64,000 nucleotides of DNA. Origin: Thermococcus gammatolerans EJ3 (GTDB taxonomy: Archaea > Methanobacteriota_B > Thermococci > Thermococcales > Thermococcaceae). The notes beneath the pieces are model-generated. The model saw only the letters and a list, made by a program, of their open reading frames with translations, ran no database searches and had not been told where the DNA came from. The DNA is taken from contig NC_012804.1 in NCBI RefSeq assembly GCF_000022365.1, positions 1,054,001 to 1,118,000 of the forward strand, read 5' to 3'. Position 1 is the first letter of the stretch. Each line of letters starts with the position of its first letter. Positions 47,670-50,276 of the stretch are shown one piece after another. The position numbers and the translations under genes were made by a program.

Positions 47670-48977
47670 CTAAAACCCTGCAATGAATGTCTGCCAGGGG
47701 TAAAACACTATCCTCTCGCCCAACTCGTACTTTCCGCCCAGCACTAAGCCCCTCCTTGCATTCAGGCGGTCCATGCTCCTCTCAACCTGCTTTCTCTGGA
47801 TCTTGCCAAGGCCGACCTCGATAACGATTTTCTCCCCGCCAAGCTCAAGGACGAAGTCAGCCCCCCCTTTGCCGGGTTCGTAGCAGAGCTTGCCGTTTCT
47901 AGACTTTGCGAGGAGGAACAGATAGAACGCTACGGTGTCCTCCAACAATGAGGCGAATACATCTTTTTTTCCGAGGCTGAAGCCGGAACCGAAGAGTAGG
48001 GCCGACTTGATTGGAACGGCGATAAACTTGATTTTTGGACTTTTTCTCCTCGCTTTTGAGAGCGAACCGCAGGGGGAAATTCTCTGCACGAGCCCAGCTT
48101 TCTCAAGGGCGTCCACCAGCTTAATAACCGTCCCCTTTGCCAGTCCAAGGGTTTTCGAAAGTTTCTCGTAGCTGAAGCGCTCTCCCTTCGGTGTTGCAAG
48201 CAGGTGAAGCAGGTCGAAGGCCCGATCGAGCGTTTCAGTGTCGAACTCATGCACGTCCCTCAGGTCACGGTAGATGACCCTGTCGAGCATGGTGCTCAGT
48301 CTTTCGTAAACCTCTCGCTCATCCATTTCCAGGATCATGGGCATTGACCCGGCCCTAACGTAGAGTTCAACGTCTTCCGTTACTGGAGGCATCGGAACTT
48401 CCTGTCCCCGTAGGATTCTCCCCATGAGCTCAGGAATTTCACGACCGGTTTTGAGAAGGTAATACTCCCTAAACGTCATCGGGAAGAGCTCCCTGTGCAG
48501 TGCTCTCCTCGCGAGGTCGGGGCTCTCCCTGAGCTTGATTGCCGATGAGCCCGTTGCAATTATGAGGAACCGCTTCTCATCGTGGAGGAGTTTCAGCTTT
48601 AAGTCCCAGTCCCTTTCGTACTGAACTTCATCGAGCAGGATCACCGCCTTCTTGGGCTGGACGAGCCGTCTGTAGGCGTTGATTACCTCCAGCAGTTCCA
48701 GGCCTAGGGCCCTCAACCTATCTAAGGACAAGTAAAGAACGTTGTTCGGGCTCGTTCTCTTAATGGCTTCAAAGTACAGCTGGGCGAGAAGGGTAGTCTT
48801 CCCAACTCCCCGTATTCCGAGCAGGAGAACTGTATCGGGGGCTCCCATCTCAAGGTACGCCGTAAGTTTTGATGAGAGATCACCGTACGACATCCTTTTG
48901 TGGGGCTTGTTGTAGGCACCGAGCAAGTTTCGGATGTTCACGAGGTGCTGTACAATAAAGTCATCTGGTTGAACCAT
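47670..48977 (-). CDS. AAA_14/DUF4143-type ATPase
   Basis: 435 residues. Walker A LLLGIRGVGKTTLLAQLYF, Walker B KKAVILLDEVQYERDWD and sensor FLIIATGSSAIKL, typical of AAA_14. Then HRELFPMTFREYYLLKTGRE, a winged helix (KLSKTLGLAKGTVIKLVDAL) and a C-terminal PD-(D/E)XK-like DUF4143 part (GGADFVLELGGEKIVIEVGL; the Lys of ExK is not obvious). Such ATPases are scattered in archaeal genomes with no settled role. Its ATG follows GGTGGGATT. A 24-bp perfect palindrome lies between the TATA box and the ATG. It diverges from the MFS gene. Confidence 0.85.
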   Translation of the reverse strand: MVQPDDFIVQHLVNIRNLLGAYNKPHKRMSYGDLSSKLTAYLEMGAPDTVLLLGIRGVGKTTLLAQLYFEAIKRTSPNNVLYLSLDRLRALGLELLEVINAYRRLVQPKKAVILLDEVQYERDWDLKLKLLHDEKRFLIIATGSSAIKLRESPDLARRALHRELFPMTFREYYLLKTGREIPELMGRILRGQEVPMPPVTEDVELYVRAGSMPMILEMDEREVYERLSTMLDRVIYRDLRDVHEFDTETLDRAFDLLHLLATPKGERFSYEKLSKTLGLAKGTVIKLVDALEKAGLVQRISPCGSLSKARRKSPKIKFIAVPIKSALLFGSGFSLGKKDVFASLLEDTVAFYLFLLAKSRNGKLCYEPGKGGADFVLELGGEKIVIEVGLGKIQRKQVERSMDRLNARRGLVLGGKYELGERIVFYPWQTFIAGF

Positions 48978-48987
48978 AATCCCACCT

Positions 48988-49018
48988 ATTTGGTCATTTG
49001 GATGACCAAATTTATAAA
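48988..49018 (-). promoter_or_regulatory. TATA box and 24-bp palindromic operator of AAA_14 ATPase
   Basis: ATTTGGTCAT-TTGG-ATGACCAAAT (48988-49011), perfect 10-bp arms around 4 bp. On the minus strand the TATA box (tttataaa, 49011-49018) lies immediately upstream of it and the ATG (48977) 11 bp downstream, so the palindrome spans from the TATA box to about the transcription start. Strong candidate repressor site. Confidence 0.8.
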
Positions 49019-49091: not shown

Positions 49092-50276
49092 ATGCGCTGG
49101 AGCGAGATTCCGAGGGGAGCGAAAGCCTACATCCTCTACCACACACTAATAACCCCTGGCCTGATAATCTGGGCGCTCTTCCCGCTCTACCTCATGGAAA
49201 CCGGCTATTCAATTTTAGAAGTTGGGGCGTTCTTCACAGCGGTCAACATCGCCACGATTCCGCTAACTTACCTCTTCGGCAGGCTCTTCAACCGCTGGGA
49301 TATCAAAAAGGGCCTAATCGCGATAGACATACTCGATGGGGTTGCCTACGTAATGTACGGCCTCGCGAAGGGAGCCATAGCCCCTATTATGCTCTTCGCA
49401 GGTAGGGCCATCGAAAAGCTCTCGACGGTTCTCTATCCCCTCTACCGCGCCTACGAGCAGATAATTTACCCGGAGGACAAATACGAGGAAATCTTCGCCT
49501 GGCACCTCCGTCTGCCCGAGATATCGAGGCTGATTACTTTTCCGATTATGGGTTACCTTCTCGGCTACGTCTATCCTGGGCCTGAAAGCTACCGCCGGGT
49601 TTTTCTGCTCTTCGGCCTCTTTTCGGCCGTCACAGTGGCCTACATCTGGTTCTTTCTGCCCTCGGTCGGTAGGAAGGAGAGGATAACGCCCGAGGGTTTC
49701 ACTTTCAAGGCTGGCGAGTTCAAGCTCCTCATAGCGTTCGAAACGCTCTTCACACTCGCCTGGTTCTTAGCTCCGGAAATCGTGCTGATAAACTACGTCG
49801 TCTTCGTGCTCCACAAGACCGTCTTCGAGGTAACTCTGATAGCCTGCGCGAGCAGTTTGGCATCGATAATAGGAACCTACGCCAGCGAGAGGGTTCCGAA
49901 GGGGAAAGGATTCCAGGCGATAGGGGTCGGCATGCTGATTAACGCCTTCTACGCTCTGGTTATGGCCCTGTCTCCTCCATTTTGGCTCGCTCTTGTTGTT
50001 TACGCAGTCGGCGACTTCGGGAACACATTCTGGTTCCCGTTCTACCGCTCCTGGATGTTCAAGCTGATTCCAAAGGAGAAGGCCAGCGAGTTCCACGCGG
50101 CTATATCAAGTTATCGAAAGCTCTTCGGCCTCTTCGCACCCTTCGTTGCCGGGGCTTTGGCGAGCATTCATCCAACGCTGCCCTACGCTGTAAGCTTCGG
50201 GCTGTTTTTAATGGCCGGGGCTATGTTTGCGAAGCTGAGCAGAAAAAGAGAGAGGGGAGCACCGAGTCCCTCTTAA
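49092..50276 (+). CDS. MFS transporter
   Basis: 394 residues with about 11-12 membrane helices in two halves, the central loop around residues 190-215 (VGRKERITPEGFTFKAGEFK). The first-loop motif YLFGRLFNRWDIKKG is a form of the MFS motif A (GxLxDRxGRR). Substrate unknown; drug-efflux-like or sugar carriers have a similar plan. An RBS is weak, as the ATG follows GGGGCTTCAG. It converges on nadM with a 4-bp overlap. It diverges from the palindrome-controlled ATPase. Confidence 0.85.
   Translation: MRWSEIPRGAKAYILYHTLITPGLIIWALFPLYLMETGYSILEVGAFFTAVNIATIPLTYLFGRLFNRWDIKKGLIAIDILDGVAYVMYGLAKGAIAPIMLFAGRAIEKLSTVLYPLYRAYEQIIYPEDKYEEIFAWHLRLPEISRLITFPIMGYLLGYVYPGPESYRRVFLLFGLFSAVTVAYIWFFLPSVGRKERITPEGFTFKAGEFKLLIAFETLFTLAWFLAPEIVLINYVVFVLHKTVFEVTLIACASSLASIIGTYASERVPKGKGFQAIGVGMLINAFYALVMALSPPFWLALVVYAVGDFGNTFWFPFYRSWMFKLIPKEKASEFHAAISSYRKLFGLFAPFVAGALASIHPTLPYAVSFGLFLMAGAMFAKLSRKRERGAPSPS

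What the first reader, a model, noticed from the sequence alone, without database searches (positions are those of the whole stretch)
48988..49018. 24-bp perfect palindrome between TATA box and start of an AAA_14 ATPase
ATTTGGTCAT-TTGG-ATGACCAAAT fills the gap from TATA box to transcription start. Arms this long without mismatch are very unlikely by chance and imply a strong dimeric repressor. The ATPase itself has a winged helix and could be the regulator.
Basis: partly seen in the sequence, partly recalled or inferred. Interest (0 to 1): 0.55.

Follow-up and report, generated by a model that had tools for sequence, protein, structure and literature searches.

The report
Private operators of archaeal AAA_14 ATPases
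The palindrome is a conserved control site in front of a putative immune ATPase-nuclease gene, and since each branch of this large uncharacterised family carries its own version of the site, matched to its own DNA-reading helix, these proteins most likely switch off their own genes.

Summary
The inverted repeat is real: 10-bp perfect arms around 4 unpaired bases (48988-49011), filling the gap between TATA box and Shine-Dalgarno of the ATPase gene. By itself it is not improbable: shuffled windows give 1.2 such repeats. Conservation settles it. In 94 Thermococcaceae genomes the site TTTGGTC-N8-GACCAAA occurs 17 times: 13 in front of homologues of this ATPase (one broken), 3 at loci where relatives carry the gene but it is lost, 1 elsewhere. 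It sits at a fixed distance, centre -22/-23, with a second copy exactly 33 bp upstream in the sister subfamily. Other subfamilies have different repeats at their promoters. Operator sequence follows the recognition helix of the protein's own winged helix. Promoter inverted repeats are also enriched at homologues in other archaea and in bacteria: 21 of 60 versus 6 of 153 control promoters. The family is PADLOC's candidate defence system PDC-S01, with a STAND/Orc1-like fold. Best reading: autorepression by the built-in winged helix. Binding and repression are inferred, not shown.

The parts
48988..49011 (-). operator-like inverted repeat, 10-bp arms, 4-nt loop, centre at -22 from the start codon
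   Evidence: sequence; conserved and position-fixed in homologues; p = 0.002 against shuffles
49011..49018 (-). TATA box TTTATAAA of the ATPase promoter
   Evidence: sequence; TTTATAA invariant in 13 of 13 aligned promoters
48981..48987 (-). Shine-Dalgarno AGGTGGG
   Evidence: sequence; GGT core invariant in 13 of 13 aligned promoters
47670..48977 (-). AAA_14 ATPase with winged helix and DUF4143 (PD-(D/E)XK-like) domain, 435 aa; PADLOC PDC-S01
   Evidence: AlphaFold model mean pLDDT 93.6
48072..48239 (-). winged helix-turn-helix, residues 247-302
   Evidence: HTH_IclR above cut-off, residues 249-299; helices 247-261, 270-277, 281-293 and strand 297-302 in the model
48099..48137 (-). recognition helix, residues 281-293; residue 282 (G/S) covaries with the operator base 5' of GACC

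Best explanation
The palindrome is the operator of the ATPase gene, and the ATPase is its own repressor. A dimer of the protein uses the winged helix between its AAA domain and its nuclease domain to read the two TTTGGTCAT half-sites. Bound there, between TATA box and transcription start, it blocks recruitment or start of RNA polymerase and keeps the gene at a low level. In the sister subfamily a second site 33 bp upstream, about three helical turns, lets a second dimer cover the other side of the TATA box. Each subfamily has its own operator and matching helix, so paralogues in one cell do not cross-regulate. A trigger, perhaps viral DNA or a change of nucleotide state, would release the protein from the operator and so raise its own level. 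Shown by computation: the site, its conservation, position, near-exclusive association, subfamily specificity and covariation with the recognition helix. Inferred: binding, dimerisation, repression, the trigger.
For: 13 of 17 exact sites in 94 genomes lie in front of homologues and 3 more at loci of a lost homologue; the reversed control pattern has 0 matches in all 94 genomes. At up to 3 mismatches, 48 sites fall in 3,740 bp of the 34 A+B promoters and 4 in 131,648 bp elsewhere, at -22/-23 and -55/-56. The block TATA-repeat-SD-ATG is conserved while the DNA upstream is not. The gene sits in many neighbourhoods without a constant partner. Own-subfamily operators: near-diagonal matrix over 20 clusters of 137 proteins. 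Residue 282, first turn of the recognition helix, is the single best of 346 variable columns in predicting the operator base, 28 of 28 classified rows. Subfamilies D and E are 74-77% identical in ATPase and nuclease parts but 44% in the recognition helix, and their operators differ. Shuffle p <= 0.05 for 54 of 106 homologues against 11 of 109 control promoters in Thermococcaceae, and 21 of 60 against 6 of 153 outside.
Against: No binding or expression data. In the tree the residue-base covariation rests on only 2 independent changes, both concordant, which cannot be significant alone; column 242, just before the winged helix, ties with 282 within subfamily B. 6 of 34 rows had no or tied sites and were left out of that scan. 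In one clade of subfamily A (L012-L018) the left arm is degenerate, 2-3 mismatches, and L022 has no site at 3 mismatches. Several homologues, among them L166 in the same genome (p = 0.50), show no significant single repeat. By 45%-identity clusters the median p is <= 0.05 in 5 of 9 Thermococcaceae clusters and only 4 of 18 others. In the nearest folds, STAND proteins such as CED-4 and NLRs, the winged helix is not known to bind DNA (recalled).
Confidence: 0.75

Rival explanations
1. The palindrome is an operator, but a separate host transcription factor (TrmB-, Lrp- or MarR-like) binds it and controls the ATPase.
For: Many archaeal repressors bind palindromes in this position (recalled); nothing here shows which protein binds.
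Against: The site is nearly confined to this one gene family; subfamilies use different sites, which would need as many private regulators; no partner gene is constant; operator changes go with changes in the ATPase's own helix.
Confidence: 0.13
2. The repeat is a recognition site for another act of the ATPase-nuclease: an initiator- or partition-like site (compare Orc1/Cdc6), or a cleavage or recombination end of a mobile gene, with promoter position secondary.
For: Nearest folds include Orc1/Cdc6 bound to origin DNA; a PD-(D/E)XK-like domain with E346, D374, E387 invariant in 46 sequences; genes occur in different neighbourhoods and leave the site behind when lost.
Against: Only one or two copies, locked to the TATA box and start codon; no matching copy at the 3' end of the gene; the lost genes look like plain deletions, one keeping both gene ends (L048).
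Confidence: 0.08
3. The repeat acts in RNA, as a hairpin in the 5' leader or an attenuator.
For: It lies just upstream of the Shine-Dalgarno.
Against: With the TATA box at 49011-49018 the start of transcription is expected at about the downstream end of the repeat (inference), so most of it is not transcribed; in subfamily B a second copy lies upstream of the TATA box, 33 bp away. No hairpin folding was computed.
Confidence: 0.02
4. Chance, with no function.
For: One such repeat per 64 kb is expected by chance.
Against: Conservation, fixed position and enrichment at homologues.
Confidence: 0.02

Closest known systems
PDC-S01 candidate defence system (PADLOC; AAA_14-DUF4143 proteins, COG1373 in my recollection)
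   Same: The window protein matches seven PDC-S01 models, best E 9.4e-36. PMC12988326 (passages read) describes PDC-S01 as an ATPase fused to a PD-(D/E)XK-superfamily domain, fourth most common defence across prokaryotes in its count, with validation pending for most such candidates.
   Different: The passages read say nothing on regulation; the operator and its match to the protein's own helix are what is added here.
Type Ia ParA / RepA partition ATPases that autorepress their operon
   Same: A Walker ATPase that represses its own promoter (PMC8465637 and PMC4492784, search listing and start of abstract only).
   Different: Deviant-Walker ParA fold, partition function and a ParB partner (recalled); here an AAA/STAND-like ATPase with a nuclease-like domain and no partner.
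STAND ATPases and archaeal ATPases (CED-4, plant NLRs, 2qen of Pyrococcus abyssi, 2fna SSO1545)
   Same: Fold of the ATPase plus winged-helix part: Z 16.2, rmsd 6.0, 296 aligned for 4m9s; Z 15.5, rmsd 4.4, 266 aligned for 2qen.
   Different: 14-19% identity; no sequence match to a solved structure better than E 0.07. In STAND immune receptors the winged helix is regulatory, not a DNA reader (recalled).
Orc1/Cdc6 initiators
   Same: AAA ATPase with winged helix that binds origin DNA; top Foldseek hit 2qby_B, E 6.1e-9; Z 15.0, rmsd 5.4 over 188 residues.
   Different: No nuclease domain in those (recalled); here the repeats are tied to the promoter.
Stf76 of pSSVx
   Same: A winged-helix protein that binds two sites in its own promoter, autoregulation suggested (PMC4027180, start of abstract in search listing).
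   Different: A 76-residue regulator alone, not a domain inside an ATPase-nuclease.

Membership tests
PDC-S01 / AAA_14-DUF4143 ATPases | AAA_14 and DUF4143 domains above cut-off | tested here: met
   96.3 bits against 27 and 43.6 against 28.1
PDC-S01 / AAA_14-DUF4143 ATPases | match to PADLOC PDC-S01 models | tested here: met
   seven models, best E 9.4e-36; 10 of 10 members of alignment A1 match
PDC-S01 / AAA_14-DUF4143 ATPases | location among defence genes | not tested
   neighbours were only compared among homologues
PDC-S01 / AAA_14-DUF4143 ATPases | anti-viral activity | not testable with these tools
   needs experiment
Autorepressed gene with operator in its own promoter | symmetric site at the promoter core, conserved in orthologues | tested here: met
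Autorepressed gene with operator in its own promoter | protein holds a DNA-binding domain | tested here: met
   HTH_IclR 27.3 bits against cut-off 22; winged helix in model
Autorepressed gene with operator in its own promoter | site specificity follows the protein's own recognition helix | tested here: inconclusive
   best of 346 columns and D/E contrast, but only 2 independent changes on the tree
Autorepressed gene with operator in its own promoter | binding and repression in the cell | not testable with these tools
   needs experiment
STAND / archaeal ATPases | STAND-type ATPase plus winged-helix fold | tested here: inconclusive
   Z 15-16 over 264-296 residues at 13-19% identity; Orc1 and NSF rows are close behind
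PD-(D/E)XK nucleases | E, D and E-x-K catalytic residues | tested here: inconclusive
   E346, D374, E387 invariant in 46 sequences, but E-V-G-L-G-K in place of a plain E-x-K
Orc1/Cdc6 initiators | fold with winged helix reading origin repeats | tested here: inconclusive
   fold match; no origin feature was tested

The most novel reading that the evidence does not exclude
It is a family-wide rule. PDC-S01 proteins are single-gene, self-silencing immune sensors of STAND type, in which the winged helix that in animal and plant relatives only relays the ATPase's state here reads a private operator. ATPase state would then set both gene expression and nuclease activity: at rest the protein sits on its own promoter; on infection it leaves, the gene opens and the nuclease acts. 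Operators diverge so fast that each subfamily is insulated, and the operator can be used to predict which protein reads which DNA.
Probability: 0.3. Interest if true: 0.82.

Novelty: new variant of a known kind. Interest (0 to 1): 0.62.

Why it matters
This ATPase family is very common in archaea and bacteria and has no tested function that I could find: searches of the held papers for DUF4143, COG1373, AAA_14, PDC-S01 and autoregulated archaeal ATPases showed nothing on its function or regulation (listings, plus passages of one paper). The operators give a direct handle: a DNA ligand for the purified protein, a reporter for what releases it, and a natural set of paired operator and helix variants for swap experiments. 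If release is triggered by infection, it would show how a single-gene immune system keeps a nuclease quiet.

Tried and rejected
Chance: rejected by conservation, though not by repeat length alone. Control of the divergent MFS gene (49092-50276, +): not followed further; the repeat keeps its place at homologues with other upstream neighbours. Mobile-element ends: no copy at the 3' end of the genes. Constant partner gene: none in 34 A+B loci. Site at G087 (L051): in front of an unrelated ORF, left as probable chance. Sequence search of solved structures: nothing better than E 0.07.

Rows dropped before counts: proteins under 330 aa, duplicates and promoters under 110 bp before the 106; 6 of 34 rows without or with tied sites in the column scan; 4 of 64 distant loci without a usable start or promoter, and L173-L175 not counted there because they are subfamily B; the related ATPase family PF01637 was looked at in 22 of 30 fetched loci. 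The operator patterns were written after reading the same promoters, so its diagonal is partly circular; the empty off-diagonal is the informative part. Some start codons are mechanical guesses and a few are visibly misplaced, which weakens those rows. The gene calls of the control promoters are mechanical too.

Full report
Observation. The repeat ATTTGGTCAT-TTGG-ATGACCAAAT is at 48988-49011, with TATA box TTTATAAA at 49011-49018 and Shine-Dalgarno AGGTGGG at 48981-48987, all on the minus strand in front of the gene 47670-48977. Arms are 10 bp; the four central bases do not pair. It is the only perfect inverted repeat with arms of 10 or more and loop up to 8 in the window, but shuffled windows hold 1.2 on average, so length alone proves little. 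In its own 110-bp promoter it is unusual (p = 0.002). The exact 22-mer occurs once in the 2.05-Mb genome; a copy with 2 mismatches lies at C1:582056.

The gene. The protein has AAA_14 (residues 49-172), an IclR-type winged helix (249-299) and DUF4143 (240-389), all above Pfam cut-offs, and matches PADLOC's PDC-S01 (best E 9.4e-36). The AlphaFold model is confident (mean pLDDT 93.6) and puts the recognition helix at residues 281-293. Its nearest solved folds are Orc1/Cdc6 (Foldseek) and STAND or archaeal ATPases (VIA-align, Z 16.2 over 296 residues at rmsd 6.0 for CED-4, Z 15.5 over 266 at rmsd 4.4 for 2qen).

Conservation and exclusiveness. In 94 genomes of the family (which I take to be Thermococcaceae) the pattern TTTGGTC-N8-GACCAAA has 17 sites in 16 genomes; the reversed control has none. 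Twelve lie at the promoter of an intact homologue and one (G053, L043) in front of a broken one. Three are ghosts: L002 in the window's own genome and L048 in G080 lie beside the same genes that flank the sister-subfamily ATPase elsewhere, and L048 still has the first codons and the last codons of the gene; L040 in G043 lies between the two genes that flank subfamily A in its relatives. One (G087) precedes an unrelated ORF. At up to 3 mismatches, 48 sites lie in 3,740 bp of the 34 subfamily A and B promoters and 4 in 131,648 bp elsewhere in the fetched loci. Fifteen of 16 A genes have the site, all with centre at -22. In B, 17 of 18 genes have a site at -22 or -23 and 16 of 18 one at -55 or -56; where both are found they are 33 bp apart. 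In an alignment of 13 subfamily A promoters the block from TATA to ATG is conserved and the DNA upstream is not.

Each subfamily has its own operator. Promoters of other subfamilies show other repeats: TTAGTTAA..TTAACTAA, TAGTC..GACTA, TTGTCCT..AGGACAA, TATATTCC..ATATAAA, GTGTATT..AATACAC, TGTGAAAG..CTTTCACA, TTTACCAGTAT..TGGTAAA, GTGGTT..TAATCAC. Tested across 137 proteins in 20 clusters, these are nearly confined to their own cluster or a related one; two stray matches exist, and the nine-member L132 cluster and several small ones match none. Patterns were written from the same data, so this is descriptive.

Statistics. Best inverted repeat in 110 bp, judged by dinucleotide shuffles: p <= 0.05 for 54 of 106 Thermococcaceae homologues against 11 of 109 control promoters; outside the family, in methanogens, DPANN archaea, candidate-phyla bacteria and Bacteroidota among others, 21 of 60 against 6 of 153 control promoters of the same loci (Mann-Whitney 1.7e-14 and 1.0e-7, relatedness not corrected). 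Of 31 further Thermococcaceae homologues 18 reach it. Corrected for relatedness by 45%-identity clusters it is weaker: median p <= 0.05 in 5 of 9 Thermococcaceae clusters and 4 of 18 others. In the window's own genome 6 DUF4143 genes pass the cut-off; of the five whose promoters were tested, 2 are below 0.05, 2 at 0.06-0.07 and 1 at 0.50.

Which protein reads it? First, the gene and its site occur in many neighbourhoods with no constant partner. Second, in A and B the base before GACC is T in 39 of 41 half-sites of proteins with Gly at position 282 and C in 19 of 21 with Ser. Among all 346 variable columns residue 282, in the first turn of the recognition helix, is the best predictor, 28 of 28 classified rows; in B alone (14 rows, 265 columns) it ties with column 242. 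The tree gives only 2 independent changes, both concordant, so this is a pointer, not a proof. Third, subfamilies D and E are 74% and 77% identical in ATPase and nuclease parts but 44% in the recognition helix, a value reached by only 11 of 446 windows, and their promoters carry different repeats.

Mechanism. The site covers the stretch from TATA box to the expected start of transcription, a usual place for an archaeal repressor that blocks RNA polymerase (general knowledge). Autorepression by the built-in winged helix accounts for the near-exclusive association, the subfamily-specific sites, the absence of a partner and the covariation. What releases it is unknown; for a candidate immune protein, infection is a natural guess.

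Literature. PMC12988326 (passages only) treats PDC-S01 as a very common candidate system with an ATPase and a PD-(D/E)XK-superfamily domain; the word searched there for autoregulation had no hit. Searches for DUF4143, COG1373, AAA_14, PDC-S01 and for autoregulated archaeal ATPases showed nothing on the function or regulation of this family (listings only).

Noticed in passing
L002 1501-1560 (own genome C1:582056): Ghost promoter of a lost sister-subfamily ATPase, with its 22-bp palindrome still perfect although no gene follows; it could still bind a relative or be a recent loss.
   Followed up: partly
L240-L252, L261-L269 (PF01637 ATPases): Promoters of the related archaeal ATPase family PF01637 also often hold inverted repeats (8 of 22 with shuffle p <= 0.05), such as CCGTAAGTTACTTACGG.
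   Followed up: partly
L023, L057, L067, L077, L043: Broken copies of these ATPases in several Thermococcaceae genomes; at least L023, L067 and L043 keep the operator in front of the wreck.
   Followed up: partly
L194, L203, L216, L224, L197: Methanogen and other archaeal homologues show striking tandem palindromes around the TATA box, for example two copies of TAACTAATATATTAGTTA in Methanobrevibacter (L194).
   Followed up: partly
L132-L135, L141, L143-L145, L150: A subfamily with a long split inverted repeat around the TATA box (GTTAA..GAGG..AAA / TTT..CCTC..TTAAC, by eye) that the short-loop scan does not score.
   Followed up: no
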